64,000 nt of DNA from Sialis fuliginosa (lineage: Eukaryota; Arthropoda; Insecta; Megaloptera; Sialidae): positions 9,457,001-9,521,000 of the forward strand of contig OY540813.1 in assembly GCA_961205875.1 (NCBI GenBank). Reading direction: 5' to 3'. Position 1 is the stretch's first letter. Each line of letters opens with the position of its first letter. Of this stretch, positions 3,585-61,191 are shown piece after piece. The notes beneath the pieces are model-generated. The model had not been told where the DNA came from, made no database searches, and worked only from the letters and a program-made list of their open reading frames with translations. The position numbers and the translations under genes were made by a program.

Positions 3585-6500
3585 GTGAGTATTTTTTATG
3601 TATGTATACATATATACATTATAATATGAATAAAAACAATTACCAACTAATTATTGTAATTTTGTTCTTTTTGGAGTAGTTAACTTTTGATCGTTATCGT
3701 GTGTATATGACTTTTTTAACAGTTCTACTTGACCGCTTTTTTATAAAACTGTTAAGTGTGTCTGTACTATATATATACAGATATGTTTTAATGTAATGTT
3801 ATGTAAAGAATAGCTATTACTAAGCATATTATAAGGTACGCATTAATTATATAATTATTATTACAAGAGCAGTACCTTTTTTAATTTTCTGACATTGGCT
3901 TTACAGAACGTGATCAAAAAAAGTTTCATAACGCTAGGCTATATGCGTTTTTAATTAAGAAACATCATGCGACAGCAATTTTTAATTTGTAATTTTTATA
4001 GAAGAATCCATTACAAAAATATGACCATGCACATTATATAATAATAAGTTAATCATATCATTATCTTATTCAGTGAGCTTATTTTATGTATATTTAATTA
4101 ACTTTGACAGCAATAATAGGGCCACACATTTAAATAATTTGTAAATGACATTAAACAACACAGAACTTCCAAATTATAAGTTATACTACTCAAAACAGAT
4201 ATTATAATATAAACAGAACTTAACTATTTCAAAATCAGTTTACAATATTTCCATGATCAAAAGTTATACATTCTAACATAAACACAGTAAAACATGTGGC
4301 CGCAGGCGTCATTAAAAAGTAAAAAAAAGAATAATTAAGCCCCACACACATATACGTACACAAAACACATTTATTCTGTTAATCGCGTACATAATTAATT
4401 GGCGACCATAAATAGCTTGTGATCTCTCCCTTCTAATTAGACTGTTAGTGTTCACGGCAACGCGGACGGTGGTAGCGCTGTATACAAGTACAACAATCCC
4501 CAGTGCTGGAATGGCCGTACCGTATACAGAGTGCAAATGTCCAGGCTATTTGTATTAAGACTTTCAAATGTTTCCGTTTCTCCCGTGATGGGGATCCCTG
4601 GACGCTATTTCTACGCTGCACGCAAGTCCCTCATCAGCGACCGATGTCTACAATATTATAACATCGTTCAAATTACATCCCAGGGGAAAGGAGTAGAGAG
4701 AGCTCACAAAACATTATATGCCTCTCAGTGTAATAAGATTGTGAAATATCGAACGCGATTATTTTTAATGAAGGAAGCCCTCCTCTCTCTTTCCCACCCC
4801 GTTCCGATGGTAATCGTGAATTCGGATCGTAAAAATATGTATGTATATCACTTTATTTGATTACTGTAGAAAAATTTGATCGATTTTGTAAGTCGACTCT
4901 ACTAGTTATAGAAACTTTTAGTAACGGTATAATATCATGTCTGGGTTAAAAAAAAAACTAGTTAGATAGTTTATTGTGTGATGTCAAAAGTACGATATAG
5001 TGGGTTGGAATTGAATTGAATTAAATAAAGTTTTAGCTTGATATTTTAAAAGTTTAAAAGTCATTGCCTGAATGAATATAGATCGCAAGAATTAAAACGA
5101 ACAGAAAATAGTACAGCTTTATCGTAATTCAAATCTACTCCACTTTAAAACGAGGAAGAACTTTTCGAAAGTACGACCATGTATAACACAAAAGATCAGT
5201 AATGATATGTCATGGTATTATAACTAAATTAAGAAAATAGAATCGTAATTTCCTTGAAACAAGAAGCTATATTTTAAAGTACACCTTCATTACACAACAG
5301 TAATAAAAAAAAGAACTGTTTTTAATAACACTTGAGGATAATTGTATACTGCTACAATATTTTTCACGATAATTCTTATCTTCTGTGTAGTGTATGTAGC
5401 TTCGTGCACAACTTCTACGTGTATAACTCTGGTTATTATCGGGAATAGTTTCTACCAACATTTATACCCTTTCACACGGTTATCTTTTTATATATCTGTT
5501 ATTGAAATTTATTTGCATTAGAAACTAAACATGTATATTATATTATTATTATAAAAACTCTAATATCTAGTTGTAAGTATTCTAAATAAATTTTAACAAA
5601 ATAAATATTTATTGTGAATCCGATACTCTCGTTAAAGTACCTATAAATATCCGAAATTATATATTTGTTTGTTTTTTTCGTTCGTGTGAAAAGAAAATTG
5701 ACCATTTGAAACAACTCCAACTCGAGAGCTATTATCGGAGTAGTTCCAAACAACATTAGTTAGAACAAGAATAGAAGGTTCGCCATTGCTCTTGTTATGT
5801 AGTGAACAATTACCCAGATTATACAACGGTTTTGTTAAAACAACGGCGGTTCAATGACAAGAACAGACCGATACACGTTACGCTAATTCTCTCACTCGCA
5901 CCGATCTATAAAATATCCGATTGAAACACTCGACAATGGGAAAAAAGTTCCCGCGGAAGTTATAAAAAGTGACCGTCGGTTTGTGTAAGCTGCTTAATGC
6001 AGGTCTATATTATGTCGTATATTTTGCAATGCTGTTACTTTTTTACAAGTTCCATCTAAATACAAGGTAATTTGTTAGTGTGATTCCTGTTGTTTTTATT
6101 GTTGCATTATTTTCATTAACACTATATTGTTTCTACAAAAATATTCACTATTTTTACAACAAAATTTGCAATCGATTTTTCTCAAACTTCCCTTCGTCCG
6201 ATTTCCTTCAAATTTTGGAATTTGATTTACTTTAATACAATATTTATTTAATATCTTTAATATTTTTACATGGATTTTTTTCTAAGCAAGAGTTTTATAA
6301 ATAAAAACACTAAAACCAATTTTGAGTAAGTTGCACGTTTGAAACATTGATATTTCATGAAGCTATTAAATAAATGATTTAATTACATGCACGAAACTCA
6401 TTTAACAAGCTGAAATAAATAATTTAATATCGTTTGTTTCAACAACAGTCACATTATTCAAAGCGGGAATGAGACACGTGTGAAAGCAAGCAATCTGTGA

Positions 6501-28430: not shown

Positions 28431-28552
28431 TAAGGGAAACATATTTTGTCAATCCTCTCCCTCCTATTAACAAAAAAATAGTTATAAAACACCTTAAGTT
28501 CAAGATTTTACTTTTTTAAATAAATTTTAATATATTTATATAGTAACTAAAT

Positions 28553-29308
28553 GATTCTACGTCTTATTTTTTGTATTTTAGTCGATATTTGTATGACGAG
28601 TTCAAGTTCACTGCAGGAAATTTCACTAAAAAATTTCGAATTTTTGATTTTGTTAAAAGTATGTTTATTGTATAGAAAATGACGTGAAAAGTTGAAATTT
28701 TCAAACCGCAGGTCTGTATCTCGAACCGTTCTCGAGATATAGCCTCTCAAAGTTTTACTTTTTTCAAATTTTTGGAGAAAAAAGGCCATAACTTTTGAAC
28801 GGGTGGTCGGATTTGATTTTAGTTGACGGATTTGAAATCAGCGTGTCAAAATCTATATAATGACATGTATAGTACTTTAAAATCCGACAAAAAAAATTTT
28901 GGTCAAAAATCGACATTTTTTAAGGTATACCCCTTTGAATTTTTTTCAATTTTTCGCGAAATTTTTTTTTTCGAGCTTTAAGGTATTATACATGTCATTA
29001 TAGAGATTTTGAGACGCTGATTCCAAATCCGTCAACTAAAATCAATTCCGACCATCCGTTCAAAAGTTAGAGCCATTTTTCTTCAAATTTTTGAAAAAAC
29101 TGAAACTTTGAGAGGCTATATCTCAGGGACGGTTTGAGATACAAACCTGTGGTTTAAAAATTTCAACTTTTTACGTCATTTTCTATACAATAAACATACT
29201 TTTAACGAAATCAAAAATTCAAAAAATTTTAGTAAAATTTCCTGCAGTGTACTTCAGCTCGTCATAAAAATATCGACTAAAATAAACGAAAATGAGACAT
29301 AGAAGTAT
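28553..29308. mobile_element. large palindromic element with about 330-bp arms
   Basis: The sequence from about 28553 to 28885 reappears inverted at 28979-29308. Shared words in order include TTTTAGTCGATAT, ATGACGAG, CACTGCAGG, GTATGTTTATTGTATAGAAA against its partner, GAGGCTATATCT, GACGGATTTG, and ATGACATGTATA beside the centre. A spacer of about 90 bp separates the arms. Arms are near 85-90% similar by eye, so the element is not very recent. There is no coding capacity. A diverged piece of one arm occurs at about 53010-53140. This is a foldback-type MITE or snapback element of unknown superfamily. Confidence 0.85.
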
Positions 29309-29579
29309 TATAGTTTTATAATTGAGCGTGTAAATTAATATTAAATAGTATTTTTGATTTTTGGTTAAAATGTTTGAGTTGCGCATAAAGATGAATATTC
29401 TAATAATATTTTTAAATTACTTATTAACTGAAAACGTCTATAGTAGTTAATTAAAATTTTTAATATTTATAATTTGAAAATAAAATTCCGCTACTGACAA
29501 CAATACATATATATATTAATTTACTTCGACCCATCACAAATATACATACCTACCTGCGAAACAAATAAATTCTACATGA

Positions 29580-33479: not shown

Positions 33480-33651
33480 TTAAAGACGCATAGCAGTGGA
33501 AAGAGCGTCTCAGCAGCTATCAGAAAATATACCATTACCAGTAGTTAAGAGGGCCAGGAGGTACAGGGCACATAAGCACATCATAAGTCTGAGTTTTATT
33601 TAACCCTACTGCCACAATTGACGCGACCTTAGATTTGAAACGTGTTTACGT
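33480..33651 (+). mobile_element. retroelement 3' fragment, copy 1
   Basis: From 33522 the sequence AGAAAATATACCATTA, GTAGTTAAGAGGG, AGGAGGTACAG, CAAGCACATCAT-like, GTCTGAGTTTTATTTAA, CTACTGCCACAAT and GACGCGACCTTAGATTTG is shared in order with 42282-42411. In frame the upstream part reads RRIAVERASQQLSEN, then PLPVVKRARRYRAHKH, ending at TAA before the shared non-coding tail. This looks like the last codons and 3' UTR of a retrotransposon. The family is unclear; copy 2 continues into a motif typical of Penelope-like or related elements. Confidence 0.55.
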
Positions 33652-37318: not shown

Positions 37319-38270
37319 AGGAGTTATTTTCAGAACAAAAAAAAAATAGGTATTTAAAAATAAATAATAACAAATGAATGGTCTAAATGTCAAATTTATT
37401 AAAGAAAAGGTATTTATAAATATATTTATTAATTAACAATTAAAAAAAAATAACAAAATATTTTTACAATAATCATCAAGAACACTTATTAATGGTATAG
37501 TACGTTATAAAAGCTAACACATAGTACTCAATTAAACATAGGTTACATTTATAGTATATACCCTCATTGTCGTATCATACACACGTAATATAATACAACA
37601 TACATATATCTACAAGTATGTATGTTTGTATTATGTTAGGTAAATCGGTTCATTAATATTGAATAAATTATATGGCTGTAGGTTTAACACACAAATGTAT
37701 TTGATATTTTCCCGTAGATATCACATAGAATACATTAAATATAAAATGCAAAAAAATGAAAAACATAATGTAGAGTGTATAATTTTTAACGAGTAAGACA
37801 TAATTTGTCGACCCTGAATATCGATAAAAGTTTTCTATAAAAAGACTTGAACAAAATCGAAAAATAACGACTTGAAATAAACAACAGGCTGCGTGAATGT
37901 AATCTGAGACAACTCTCCGGTTGATTAAATCTAAATCAAACAGTGCGTTATGGCAGTCTGGGTTGGCTTTGTTAACGACCAATATCGAAGAAATACATAC
38001 ATGCAGAGATCAAATTGGTACTTTGCTTATAATTTTCACAAATATTCTTATTTATAACTAAAAAGTAGTTATGGTTTTTTTAATTATTTGTTTTTGATTT
38101 ATACAAATTCTGATTAATATTATAAAATAGGACTGGACTTATAAGCAAGAAAAAAAGAACTGATATCTTTTAACAACTAACGTTCTAAAAAAGTAATTAA
38201 TTAAACGCTAAAAATACTGCTATAGGTGCCGCGAGATTTTCTCATACGCTGTACTGTGTGTACAATATAA
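37319..38270. other. AT-rich spacer
   Basis: No supported feature. The 104-codon minus frame at 37668-37982 has no recognisable domain. Confidence 0.4.
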
Positions 38271-38336
38271 TGCCGTGTTTAGACCGAAAAAACAAAACAG
38301 CAACATCGTCTCTTTTTTACAAAAGTGCAACTAACC
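38271..38336 (+). mobile_element. left half of a MITE interrupted by the foldback element
   Basis: TGCCGTGTTTAGACCGAAAA, ACAAAACAGCAACA and ACAAAAGTGCAA occur in the same order as in the minus strand of the intact MITE at 61053-61191. The sequence stops at the 9-bp word CAACTAACC (38328-38336) and resumes at 41271. Confidence 0.85.
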
Positions 38337-38344
38337 GGGTTGAG

Positions 38345-38581
38345 CACAACTCATACCAAGACAACTAATACCGAGACAAATCATACCGGGACAACTCATA
38401 CCAAGACAACTCATACCAGGAGACAACTCATACCACGACAGCTAATACCAGTAGACAACTCATACCAAGGGACAACTCATACCAGGACAACTCATACCAG
38501 TGGACAACTCATACCGCGACAACTCATACCACGACAAGTCATACCAGGGGACAACTCATACCAGCGGACAACTCATACCAC
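38345..38581 (+). repeat. subterminal tandem array of GACAACTCATACCA-type units, left arm
   Basis: About 16 direct copies of a 12-16 bp unit, (G)ACAACTCATACCA, separated by variable 1-3 base linkers (AG, GG, CG, GTG). An inverted, nearly identical array lies at 41017-41253. Regular short repeats just inside the end resemble transposase-binding arrays of foldback elements. Confidence 0.9.
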
Positions 38582-38689
38582 CGATATTTTTTTATTTTGT
38601 AAGATTAAGGTTTTTACGGAAAAAAAATGATATTTACGTATTAAGTAAGATTATAGGCCCGTATTGTTCAAATAACAAATTCAAATGAA

Positions 38690-39480
38690 CTATATAGAAA
38701 CCTTGTTTATAATTTAATCAATTAAAAAACAATTGTACAGATGCGTATTAAGTGATATTTGAGGCCCGTGTATTAAATTAATTTATAAATTCACAACTCG
38801 TCCCCTGTCACAGATGAAGGGTTGTATTAGGTCTCATTCGATCCGGCGGGAAAAATACTTCGGAATACCAGGGGTGTGGGGGGCAAAACTACCCTCTAAC
38901 TAGCACAGGAGACGAGATATTTTCAATTTTCTGTAATGAATACAGCAAAACAGAAAAATTCAATCTTTACAATAAATACAAAATAGAAACATTAGATATT
39001 ATCATTGAATTCATAAAAAGTCCAGGCACGTATTAAGTGATATTTTAGGCCCGTATTGTTAAAATAACAAATAGACATATACTAAATAGAAACCTTGTTT
39101 ATAATTTAATCAATTAAAAAACAATTGTACAGATGCGTATTAAGTGATATTTGAGGCCCGTGTATTAAATTAATTTATAAATTCACAACTCGTCCCCTGT
39201 CACAGATGGAGGGTTGTATTTGGTCTCATTCGATCCGGCGGGAAAAATACTTCGTGATACCAGGGGTGTGGGGGGCAAAACTACTCTCTATCTAGCACAG
39301 GAGTCGAGATTTTTACTATTTTCTGTAATGAAAAAGTAGAAAAATAAGAGAAAAATTCAATATTTACGATAAATACAGTATAGAAACATATGATATTATT
39401 ATTAAATTTAATAAAATGAAAAAAAAGTCCAGACACGTATTAAGTGATATTTTAGGCCCATATTGTTAAAATAACAAATT
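38690..39480 (+). repeat. two direct 392-bp modules in the left arm
   Basis: Landmarks repeat at a spacing of 392 bases: GTACAGATGCGTATTAAG at 38735 and 39127, CCGGCGGG at 38843 and 39235. Each module contains GAGGCCCGTGTATTAAA, CGTCCCCTGTCACAGATG, TCATTCGATCCGGCGGGAAA and a G-rich TGTGGGGGGCAAAACTAC. The right arm carries the same modules inverted. Confidence 0.85.
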
Positions 39481-39514
39481 CACATATACTATATAAAAAC
39501 CATTTTTTTAAATT

Positions 39515-40910
39515 TATCAAATTATAAACAAGGTTTCTGTATAGTGTATGTGAATTTGTTATTTTAACACTACGGGCTTAAAATATCACTTAATACGTAT
39601 CTAGATTTTTACATTTTATTAAATTTAATCATAATATCATGTTTCCATGCTGTATTTATTGTAAATATTGAATTTTTCTGTTTCGCTACTTATGTAGTAT
39701 TCATTACAGAAAATCGTAAATATCTCGGCTCTGGTGCGAGTTAGAGGGTAGTTTTGCCCCCCATACCCCTAGAATCCTGTAGTATTTTTCCCGCCGGATC
39801 GAATGAGACCAAATACAACCCTTCATCTGTGGCAGGGGACGAGTTGTGAATTTATAAATTATTTTAATACACGGGCCTCAAATATCACTCAATACGCTTC
39901 AATTTTTTTAAATTGATTTAATTATAAACAAGGTTGCTATTTAGTATATGTCTATTTGTTATTTTAACAATACGGGCCTAAAATATCACTTAATACGTGC
40001 CTGGACTTTTTATGAAATTCAATAATAATAATATCTTATGTTTCTATTTTGTATTTATTGTAAAGATTGAATTTTTCTGTTTTGCTGTATTCATTACAGA
40101 AAATCAAGGTTGCTATTTAGTATATGTCTATTTGTTATTTTAACAATACGGGCCTAAAATATCACTTAATACGTGCCTGGACTTTTTATGAAATTCAATA
40201 ATAATAATATCTTATGTTTCTATTTTGTATTTATTGTAAAGATTGAATTTTTCTGTTTTGCTGTATTCATTACAGAAAATCGAAAATATCTTGACTCCTG
40301 TGCTAGATAGAGGGTAGTTTTGCCCCCCACTCCCCTGGTATTCCGAAGTATTTTTCCCGCCGGATCGAATGAGACCTAATACAACCCTTCATCTGTGACA
40401 GGGGACGAGTTGTGAATTTATAAATTAATTTAATACACGGGCCTCAAATATCACTTAATACGCATCTGTACAATTGTTTTTTAATTGATTAAATTATAAA
40501 CAAGGTTTCTATTTAGTATATGTCTATTTGTTATTTTAACAATACGGGCCTAAAATATCACTTAATACGTGCCTGGACTTTTTATGAATTCAATGATAAT
40601 ATCTAATGTTTCTATTTTGTATTTATTGTAAAGATTGAATTTTTCTGTTTTGATGTATTCATTACAGAAAATTGAAAATATCTCGTCTCCTGTGCTAGTT
40701 AGAGGGTAGTTTTGCCCCCCACACCCCTGGTATTCCGAAGTATTTTTCCCGCCGGATCGAATGAGACCTAATACAACCCTTCATCTGTGACAGGGGACGA
40801 GTTGTGAATTTATAAATTAATTTAATACACGGGCCTCAAATATCACTTAATACGTATCTGTACAATTGTTTTTTAATTGATTAAATTATAAACAAGGTTT
40901 CTATATAGTT
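39515..40910 (-). repeat. three inverted 392-bp-type modules in centre and right arm
   Basis: The landmark CCGCCGG occurs at 39791, 40357 and 40749. The last two pair symmetrically with the left-arm copies (coordinate sums near 79,600, equal to the sum of the element ends). The copy at 39791 is an extra, more diverged central module in inverted orientation. The larger spacing between the first two is explained by a 176-bp duplication. Confidence 0.8.
39930..40281. repeat. 176-bp exact-looking tandem duplication
   Basis: AAGGTTGCTATTTAGTATAT starts at 39930 and again at 40106. Each copy runs to CATTACAGAAAATC, and the two look identical base for base. This is a very recent duplication inside the foldback element. 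Confidence 0.9.
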
Positions 40911-41016
40911 CATTTGAATTTGTTATTTGAACAATACGGGCCTATAATCTTACTTAATACGTAAATATCATTTTTTTTCCGTAAAAACCTTAATCTTACA
41001 AAATAAAAAAATATCG

Positions 41017-41253
41017 GTGGTATGAGTTGTCCGCTGGTATGAGTTGTCCCCTGGTATGACTTGTCGTGGTATGAGTTGTCGCGGTATGAGTTGTCCACTG
41101 GTATGAGTTGTCCTGGTATGAGTTGTCCCTTGGTATGAGTTGTCTACTGGTATTAGCTGTCGTGGTATGAGTTGTCTCCTGGTATGAGTTGTCTTGGTAT
41201 GAGTTGTCCCGGTATGATTTGTCTCGGTATTAGTTGTCTTGGTATGAGTTGTG
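41017..41253 (-). repeat. subterminal tandem array, right arm
   Basis: Inverted counterpart of the array at 38345-38581, reading TGGTATGAGTTGTC-type units on the plus strand, in the same order of linkers. Confidence 0.9.
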
Positions 41254-41270
41254 CTCAACCCCAACTAACC

Positions 41271-41325
41271 CTATACATTATTAAATACGAAATGTTTTAA
41301 AACTGTTTTTTTTTTTTGGTCTAAT
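41271..41325 (+). mobile_element. right half of the interrupted MITE
   Basis: After the second CAACTAACC copy the sequence CTATACATTATTAAATACGA continues the MITE, matching CCTATGCATTTTTAAATACGA on the minus strand of the intact copy near 61120. It runs to TTTTTGGTCTAA, the MITE's other end. The inner part near this end has lost about 20 bp relative to the intact copy. Confidence 0.8.
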
Positions 41326-42110: not shown

Positions 42111-42281
42111 ACTCCCATTTGATTATTTATAAAAAGTTAATCTAAATAAAAAAAATAGAAATAATCATTGCTTTACAATCAAGTAGAGCATATTTTTTTT
42201 CGCTCGATTTAAAGAATTTTAGGTAATAAAAAAATTTAATTATGGGTGGCTAATATATTAACGTGAAAGAATAATAGAATT

Positions 42282-42540
42282 AGAAAATATACCATTATCA
42301 GTAGTTAAGAGGGTCAGGAGGTACAGTGCACACAAGCACATCATGAGTCTGAGTTTTATTTAATCCTACTGCCACAATCGACGCGACCTTAGATTTGGAA
42401 CGTATTCACGTTCTAAAAGTGAACTTTTAGAAGAGCCCTGAAGATGTCCACTGCAATGTGTGACGAACGTTGGCCGATAACACGACCAAACCGACGCGGC
42501 TTACACCCAGAAGCCAAGATCCATATCAATATCACCTCGG
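42282..42540 (+). mobile_element. retroelement 3' fragment, copy 2, with hammerhead-like core
   Basis: Positions 42282-42411 match 33522-33651 in order. The segment then continues with GAGCCCTGAAGATGTCCACT and TGACGAACGTTGG (42435-42473). CTGAAGA followed by a GAA(A)CGTTGG word is the arrangement found in 3' ends of many insect retroelements, and hammerhead-like cores of the form CTGANGA...GAAA are known from Penelope-like elements. The GAAA here is reduced to GAAC. No intact reverse transcriptase is present. Confidence 0.5.
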
Positions 42541-55603: not shown

Positions 55604-56007
55604 CCCCGGGAAAAAATTACAGATCTGAAGTGATCAAATCAGATCTTGATAGATCTGCATTTTGAGACACATTATATTTTTTCACTGGTTTTTGATCTCT
55701 GGAGACCTGCAAAGATCTATAACGATCTACAAAGATCTACAATTATCTACAAAGATCTAGAACGATTTACAAAGATCTCTGAAGATCATTGTAACGTTGA
55801 AAATTCATGAACTTTCAACGTTGAAATTTCATGAATTTCAATCTCTATCCCGAACTTCAACGATCTTTATAAATCTTTGTAGATCACTGTGTAAATCGTT
55901 GTAGATCTTTGAAGGTCAAAAACCAGTGAAAAAAGATGATGTCTCAAAATGCAGATCTATCAAGATCTGATTTGATCACTTTAGATCTGAAATTTTTTCC
56001 CGAGACT
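55604..56007. mobile_element. TIR element packed with GATCT repeats
   Basis: The left end CCCCGGGAAAAAATTACAG and the minus-strand right end TCTCGGGAAAAAATTTCAG are followed on both sides by ATCTGAAGTGATCAAATCAG-type sequence and ATCTTGATAGATCTGC, then ATTTTGAGACA. The TIRs are at least 70 bp and about 90% alike. The interior is a string of AAAGATCTA(C/T)AA-type repeats in both orientations. A palindromic AACGTTGAAAATTCATGAA / TTCAACGTTGAAATTTCATG block sits at the centre. No coding capacity is present. Confidence 0.85.
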
Positions 56008-61052: not shown

Positions 61053-61191
61053 TGCCGTGTTTAGACCAAAGGAAACAAAACAGCAACACGGTGTTTGAAA
61101 ACACATCGTATTTAAAAATGCATAGGGTTTATTGCACTTTTGTCAAAAAGACACAATGTTGCTGTTTTGTTTTTTTGGTCTAAACACAGTT
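61053..61191. mobile_element. intact MITE with CCGTGTTTAGACCAAA ends
   Basis: The left end GTGTTTAGACCAAAGGAAAC, followed by AAAACAGCAACA, is mirrored at the right by TGTTGCTGTTTTG and TTTGGTCTAAACAC. The TIRs are about 30 bp. Read on the minus strand, this element matches both sides of the foldback insertion at 38271-41325 and contains the uninterrupted counterpart CAATAAACC of its target site. The length is near 140 bp, so it is non-autonomous. The superfamily is unclear because AT-rich flanks hide the duplication. Confidence 0.85.

What the first reader, a model, noticed from the sequence alone, without database searches (positions are those of the whole stretch)
38271..41325. Foldback/Mutator-like element nested in a MITE, with 9-bp TSD and readable empty site
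The element at 38337-41261 is bounded by a perfect CAACTAACC duplication. Removing it and one copy restores a MITE whose intact paralogue lies at 61053-61191 on the opposite strand (GTGCAATAAACCCTATGC against GTGCAACTAACCCTATAC). This fixes boundaries and target length without alignment to other genomes. A 9-bp target plus arms made of tandem repeats is the classic Drosophila Foldback signature.
Basis: partly seen in the sequence, partly recalled or inferred. Interest (0 to 1): 0.8.

Follow-up and report, generated by a model that had tools for sequence, protein, structure and literature searches.

The report
Foldback Mutator transposon nested in MITE
A 2.9-kb hairpin-shaped jumping gene has inserted into an older, smaller jumping gene; the same genome holds sister copies and a longer copy carrying the likely enzyme that moves them, so this is a well-resolved new family of a known kind of transposon.

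Summary
Window 38337-41261 is a discrete 2,925-bp element between perfect CAACTAACC duplications, with 996-bp arms, 99% complementary. Each arm starts with GGGTTGAGC and 15 units of a 12-13-bp core at a pitch of 15 or 17 bp. The host MITE reads without a gap at the rebuilt junction in 16 of 16 other copies aligned.

The own genome (392 Mb, 20 contigs) holds nine further copies with both ends. Of all ten, seven have perfect 9-bp duplications, one matches at 8 of 9, one has 8 bp, one has none.

An 8,952-bp copy on C7, with the same ends and a 9-bp duplication, encodes a 482-aa open frame with FLYWCH and MULE domains; a second open frame on C8 is 96% identical (dN/dS 0.31). The window element is thus a non-autonomous Mutator (Phantom/Muta-type) element with foldback arms, probably moved in trans. 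Published Muta1 and Tm1 have nearly the same anatomy: a new family of a known kind.

Extras: the arms evolve in concert (13 of 13 subfamily differences shared by both arms), and the internal monomer also sits in another dispersed repeat.

The parts
38328..38336 (+). left 9-bp target-site duplication CAACTAACC
   Evidence: sequence
41262..41270 (+). right 9-bp target-site duplication CAACTAACC
   Evidence: sequence
38337..41261 (.). whole non-autonomous foldback element, 2,925 bp, no open frame of 120 aa or more
   Evidence: TSD plus TIR boundaries; frames; nine sister copies with both ends
38337..39332 (+). left inverted-repeat arm, 996 bp, 99% complementary to the right arm
40266..41261 (-). 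right inverted-repeat arm
38337..38345 (+). 9-bp terminal motif GGGTTGAGC (left)
41253..41261 (-). 9-bp terminal motif (right)
38346..38580 (+). array of 15 units, core (G)ACAACTCATACC, pitch 15 or 17 bp; proposed transposase-binding array
   Evidence: TRF; unit register; same pitch list in 19 of 29 arms of the family
41018..41252 (-). mirror array of 15 units
38636..39531 (+). left run of ~392-bp tandem units
   Evidence: self-BLAST (38636-39124 against 39028-39531, 87.5%)
40105..40962 (-). right run of ~392-bp tandem units
   Evidence: TRF, 94% matches
39929..40281 (+). perfect 176-bp tandem duplication inside the right half (recent)
   Evidence: TRF, 100% matches
38271..38336 (+). left part of the host MITE; TAA at 38268-38270 is probably its own target duplication
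41271..41325 (+). right part of the host MITE, terminal bases missing
61053..61191 (-). uninterrupted paralogue of the host MITE

Best explanation
The element is a non-autonomous member of a Mutator-superfamily (MULE; Phantom/Muta type) transposon family with foldback arms. It was inserted by cut-and-paste into a PIF/Harbinger-like MITE. A transposase with a FLYWCH zinc finger and a MULE catalytic domain, encoded by the 8,952-bp copy on contig C7 and perhaps also by a relative on C8, is proposed to recognise the terminal motif plus the array of 15 cores in each arm, pair the two ends, cut, and integrate with a 9-bp stagger. Shown: boundaries, duplication length, empty site, sister copies, and a transposase frame inside a copy with the same ends. 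Inferred: that this enzyme moves this element, that the array is its binding site, and that recombination or repair between the arms keeps them alike.
For: 1) Perfect 9-bp duplication and TIR end at the same base. 2) Nine further copies with both ends; 7 of all 10 have perfect 9-bp duplications, each of a different sequence. 3) The C7 copy shares 432 bp of arm at 96.5% with the window element and holds a 482-aa open frame with FLYWCH and MULE domains. 4) A second open frame on C8 is 96% identical: 18 non-synonymous and 16 synonymous changes, dN/dS 0.31, Fisher p 0.0012, which suggests selection on the protein; this rests on one pair of sequences. 5) D203, D267, H291, E398 (numbering) and W380 of the C7 frame keep the D-to-H (24) and W-to-E (18) spacings of D283-H307 and W401-E419 in Muta1, where changing D214, D283 or E419 abolished transposition and W401F cut it by 79% (passages of PMC5225508); the assignment is by motif and spacing only. 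6) Three non-autonomous copies are 99.75-99.89% identical over their full length. 7) At 13 of 13 columns where the C7 copy differs from a base fixed in seven other copies, both of its arms carry the same base.
Against: No activity or binding was measured. The C7 and window elements differ inside the arms (107-bp against ~392-bp units), so the window element is not a simple deletion of the C7 copy. L017 has no duplication and L010 has 8 bp. Nine of 29 tips had no partner end in the stretches fetched, about 5-10 kb. The C8 frame has L where C7 has W380, and no tip was found in C8:1320500-1339400. The structure prediction failed (mean pLDDT 32), so the fold was not checked. No transposase tree could be built, because no reference sequences were at hand.
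Confidence: 0.92

Rival explanations
1. It belongs to another superfamily that also makes foldback-like elements, such as P/Galileo, Merlin or hAT, and the resemblance to Mutator is convergent.
For: Long internally repetitive arms occur in Galileo, a P-superfamily element (passages of PMC3688188).
Against: The one copy with both ends and a long open frame encodes MULE plus FLYWCH domains and no other Pfam family at E up to 1, and the duplication is 9 bp in 7 of 10 copies.
Confidence: 0.03
2. The palindrome arose by local inverted duplication or an assembly error, and the 9-bp repeat is a coincidence.
For: Near-perfect 1-kb palindromes can arise by template switching (general knowledge).
Against: The element with the same ends sits at nine other places, most with their own flanking duplications, and the host MITE gives a clean empty site.
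Confidence: 0.01
3. The family is extinct: the window element moved long ago and the two open transposase frames survive for another reason, for instance as a domesticated gene.
For: dN/dS below 1 would also be seen in a domesticated gene. The C8 copy has no recognisable tips in C8:1320500-1339400 and has L where the C7 copy has W380.
Against: The C7 frame lies inside a copy with intact ends and a perfect 9-bp duplication. Three non-autonomous copies are 99.75-99.89% identical.
Confidence: 0.12

Closest known systems
Muta1 (Aedes aegypti; Phantom/Muta clade of MULEs)
   Same: FLYWCH plus DDE transposase of about 500 aa; 8-9-bp duplications; terminal motif followed by 12-bp tandem repeats with 3-4-bp spacers; classed by its authors as a type 2 Foldback element; non-autonomous derivatives (passages of PMC5225508)
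   Different: Muta1 has nine repeats, 145-bp TIRs and a two-exon gene; here there are 15 units plus a second tier of ~392-bp or 107-bp units giving arms of about 1-1.5 kb. Sequences were not compared. Activity is shown only for Muta1.
Tm1 (Meloidogyne)
   Same: Composite TIR with ~14-bp repeats, mostly 9-bp duplications, FLYWCH plus MULE transposase of 496 aa, mostly non-autonomous copies (passages of PMC3169594)
   Different: Tm1 ends are asymmetric 7-bp motifs and its repeat number varies (1-9), with the two TIRs on average 93% identical. Here the ends are symmetric, the 15-unit array is the same in 19 of 29 arms, and the outer arms are identical in 6 of 10 copies.
Tetris (Drosophila virilis)
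   Same: Foldback arms with large internal tandem units (~220 bp), 8-10-bp duplications, suggested by its authors to be Mutator (passages of PMC4079207)
   Different: No autonomous partner was found for Tetris; here there is one candidate with matching ends.
Galileo (Drosophila, P superfamily)
   Same: Long internally repetitive arms; several transposase-binding sites shown in the arms (passages of PMC3688188); arms of one copy 98-100% identical (passages of PMC3573991)
   Different: THAP domain and P-type transposase; a different enzyme.

Membership tests
Mutator superfamily (MULE) | MULE-type transposase in a copy with the same ends | tested here: met
   PF10551 E 2.1e-11, 44.6 bits against a cut-off of 27.6, in the 482-aa frame of L009
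Mutator superfamily (MULE) | 8-10-bp target duplication | tested here: met
   9 bp in 7 of 10 copies with both ends, 8 of 9 matching in one, 8 bp in one, none in one
Mutator superfamily (MULE) | DDE residues with C-x2-H between second D and E | tested here: inconclusive
   D203, D267, C288-x2-H291, E398 assigned by motif and by spacing to Muta1; no usable structure and no alignment to a reference
Phantom/Muta clade | N-terminal FLYWCH plus MULE domain | tested here: met
Phantom/Muta clade | transposase groups with Phantom/Muta in a tree | not testable with these tools
   no reference transposase sequences at hand; a viral-contig scan, which reaches close relatives only, found nothing
Foldback element, type 2 (structural class) | long inverted arms containing short tandem repeats | tested here: met
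Drosophila FB (FB4/NOF) | sequence homology of arms or NOF protein | not tested
   no FB or NOF sequence at hand
P superfamily (Galileo) | THAP domain and P-type transposase | tested here: not met
   only FLYWCH and MULE found by Pfam at E up to 1
PIF/Harbinger MITE (the host MITE) | 3-bp TWA target duplication | tested here: met
   read by eye: TTA or TAA matching at both ends in 10 of 17 rows (one of them an end unit of the C4 tandem array); of the other 7, 3 are further units of that array and 4 (the window copy, L048, L049, L057) have truncated or changed right ends; the TWA rule is recalled
PIF/Harbinger MITE (the host MITE) | a Harbinger transposase with the same ends | not tested
   not searched

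The most novel reading that the evidence does not exclude
The two arms of each element evolve as one sequence because recombination or repair between the arms rewrites the outer 0.4-1 kb from one arm to the other. The fixed 15-unit array is the transposase-binding platform. The family also exports its internal monomer, which now sits in another, abundant dispersed element, so one foldback family both keeps its own ends in concert and seeds new repeats.
Probability: 0.3. Interest if true: 0.5.

Novelty: new member of a known kind. Interest (0 to 1): 0.36.

Why it matters
Some foldback elements (Tetris, for example; PMC4079207 passages) are known without their enzyme. Here one genome gives boundaries, an empty site, sister copies of graded similarity and a candidate autonomous copy whose protein seems to be under purifying selection. 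That makes the role of the tandem array and the homogenisation of foldback arms directly testable. Long palindromic arms also matter because such elements can cause inversions (Galileo; title and start of the abstract of PMC2775673 in the listing).

Tried and rejected
Tried without result. AlphaFold2 on the transposase (two sequences) gave mean pLDDT 32 and was not used; no fold search was run. A scan of viral contigs with the single protein found nothing. A PDB search by sequence at E up to 1 gave five matches, the best a weak FLYWCH match (2rpr, E 0.0012), the others at E 0.39 or worse. Rfam found nothing in the window at gathering scores, and ARAGORN (bacterial code) found no tRNA. The Phantom founding paper is not held; I know it only through other papers. 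The host was not identified: the telomere-repeat search did not complete, so I name no organism. All papers were seen as search listings or as passages around search terms; none was read whole.

Considered and rejected: chance repeat or assembly palindrome (sister copies); P/Galileo-type element (no THAP); the window element as a plain deletion of the C7 copy (different internal units).

Results against a tidy story. L017 has no duplication (0 of 9). L010 matches at 2 of 9 in the 9-bp register and only reads as a duplication at 8 bp. L023 has a one-base mismatch and 306 of 371 identical arm columns. Nine of 29 tips are single. The rise of arm divergence towards the centre is not steady in L017 and L020 and is partly inherited: four inner differences are common to five copies (four at identical positions in L018 and L025; the same four offset by one base in L011, L019 and L021, my reading). 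It is therefore not independent evidence of conversion in each copy. The test that variation among units sits in the spacers ranked 16 of 455 column triples; it is modest because the last spacer base is invariant, so the core is really 13 bp. Copy counts from genome searches are lower bounds, because the tool skips common words and scores only the best candidates.

Full report
OBSERVATION. The window is contig C5:9457001-9521000 of a 392-Mb assembly in 20 contigs, with 27.7% G+C. The element at 38337-41261 is bounded by CAACTAACC at 38328-38336 and 41262-41270. The repeat is exactly 9 bp: the next base differs on both sides. The inverted repeat begins and ends at the same boundaries with GGGTTGAGC / GCTCAACCC. 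The arms are 996 nt and 99% complementary with 933 nt between, and identical over the first 406 bp.

ANATOMY. Each arm has a 9-bp terminal motif, then 15 units with a 12-bp core ACAACTCATACC. The base before the core is G from the second unit on, so 13 bp is a fair description. Spacing is 15 or 17 bp, never 16 in this element. The exact pitch list recurs in 19 of 29 arms of the family, including both arms of the 8,952-bp copy; the other 10 arms are shortened or degraded. Inward lie ~392-bp tandem units and a perfect 176-bp duplication at 39929-40281. No stop-to-stop frame of 120 aa or more lies in the element; the longest there is 115 aa, starting in the flank and running over the 15-bp array.

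EMPTY SITE. The flanks joined at one copy of the 9-mer align to 61053-61191 (minus strand) without a gap at the junction and likewise to 15 further MITE copies at 12 loci. The MITE is about 140 bp, with ends TGCCGTGTTTAGACC. Read by eye, 10 of 17 rows have the same TTA or TAA on both sides, so the MITE looks PIF/Harbinger-like (rule recalled). In contig C4 it also occurs as a short tandem array of four units with ~142-bp spacing.

SISTER COPIES. A tip search scored all 30 of its first-look candidates and gave 29 tips; this is a lower bound. Twenty belong to ten copies with both ends, nine are single tips. For the nine singles I looked for a partner only within the fetched stretches (about 5-10 kb). 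Target duplications of the ten copies: perfect 9 bp in seven (L009 TATTTTATT, L011 GTATTTGTT, L018 ATTAAAAAG, L019 AATAATGAT, L020 AAAATTATA, L021 AAATAAATG, and the window copy); 8 of 9 in L023; perfect 8 bp in L010 (2 of 9 in the 9-bp register); none in L017. L011, L019 and L021 are 99.75-99.89% identical over their full length.

THE ENZYME. L009 (C7:18227490-18236441, 8,952 bp, duplication TATTTTATT) has arms of ~1.5 kb at 97.4%. It carries a 482-aa stop-to-stop frame on its minus strand, 4032-5477, with FLYWCH (E 9.9e-13) and MULE (E 2.1e-11) domains. The own genome has 10 MULE-domain places over the cut-off in a search that scored all 16 of its candidates. A search with the C7 protein also gave 10 matches: C7 itself, C8 at 96% without stops, six pieces on C11 (46-83%, four of them with stops), a C5 relative at 33% with stops, and a weak C10 piece. 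Between C7 and C8 dN is 0.016 and dS 0.052, ratio 0.31, p 0.0012. By motif and spacing, D203, D267, H291, W380 and E398 correspond to the Muta1 residues D214, D283, H307, W401 and E419 (passages of PMC5225508); this is an inference. The C8 copy has L at the W position and no recognisable tip in C8:1320500-1339400.

ARMS IN CONCERT. In six of ten copies the two arms are identical over 430 of 430 columns; in two (L018 and the window copy) they differ at one, in L017 at three, and L023 is degraded. Yet the C7 copy differs from seven others at 13 of 428 columns, and at all 13 both of its arms carry the same base. The simplest reading is that the arms were homogenised after the two subfamilies split. 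In nine of the ten copies (L023, 585 bp, is too short to tell) divergence between arms broadly rises towards the centre, though not steadily in L017 and L020, and some inner differences are inherited. Galileo authors propose template repair between arms as a way to extend them (passages of PMC3573991); a similar process is my inference here.

INTERNAL MONOMER ELSEWHERE. A search with 38680-39020 had 1,702 first-look candidates, of which only 40 were scored. Apart from the foldback copies, 22 dispersed places match at 87-88%. Eight were fetched. Six of them (L058, L059, L060, L063, L064, L065) align to each other at 89-98% over 0.7-1.2 kb. Wider stretches around two of these (L066, L067) define a 1,321-bp repeat, X, with CCCGGGAAAAAATTTCAGATCT ends, an AGATCGTTGT minisatellite and one ~434-bp stretch that matches the foldback monomer at 86-88%. 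The same stretch matches the C7 copy at 73%. The other two loci (L061, L062) hold inverted arrangements of the stretch. Direction of transfer is not settled. I lean to foldback-to-X, because both foldback subfamilies hold the sequence.

MECHANISM. Shown: the anatomy of a cut-and-paste element with a 9-bp stagger, an enzyme frame within a copy with the same ends, and near-identical copies. Inferred: trans-mobilisation of the window element by the C7 enzyme, binding to the core array (multiple binding sites in long arms were shown for Galileo; passages of PMC3688188, which also says this was untested for Foldback and Phantom elements), and conversion between arms.

KNOWN KINDS. Muta1 and Tm1 share most of these features. 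In a 2019 survey the Phantom group, which includes Muta elements, has duplications of 8-10 bp where given, a zinc finger that is FLYWCH, SWIM or absent, and in aphids a minisatellite after the transposase frame (passages of PMC6446971). The C7 copy also has a ~134-bp tandem array just 3' of its frame. Literature searches were made; none of their listings showed this sequence family, but they could only be searched by words.

Noticed in passing
window 55605-56005: Short palindromic element with AGATCTACAA-type tandem repeats and CCCGGGAAAAAATT-like ends; by its ends a short relative of the 1,321-bp X repeat (L066, L067) that carries the foldback monomer.
   Followed up: partly
L066:3466-4786 and L067:3657-4977: X repeat: dispersed, 96.6% identical between these two copies, AGATCGTTGT minisatellite plus one ~434-bp segment matching the foldback monomer at 86-88%; no clear target duplication (2 bp at most, by eye).
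   Followed up: partly
window 28545-29315: Another long self-palindrome, 85% identical to its own reverse complement over 776 aligned positions.
   Followed up: no
L047 (C4:13732500-13734000): The host MITE occurs as a short tandem array of four units with ~142-bp spacing.
   Followed up: no
L011:206-490: The left flank of this copy is 81% similar to the foldback monomer, so this copy may have landed in an older relic of related sequence.
   Followed up: partly
L017: Copy without target duplication and with monomer-like sequence (88%) in its left flank; possibly a product of recombination between copies.
   Followed up: no
window 33519-33651 and 42279-42411: 133-bp direct repeat at 92% identity, unidentified.
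   Followed up: no
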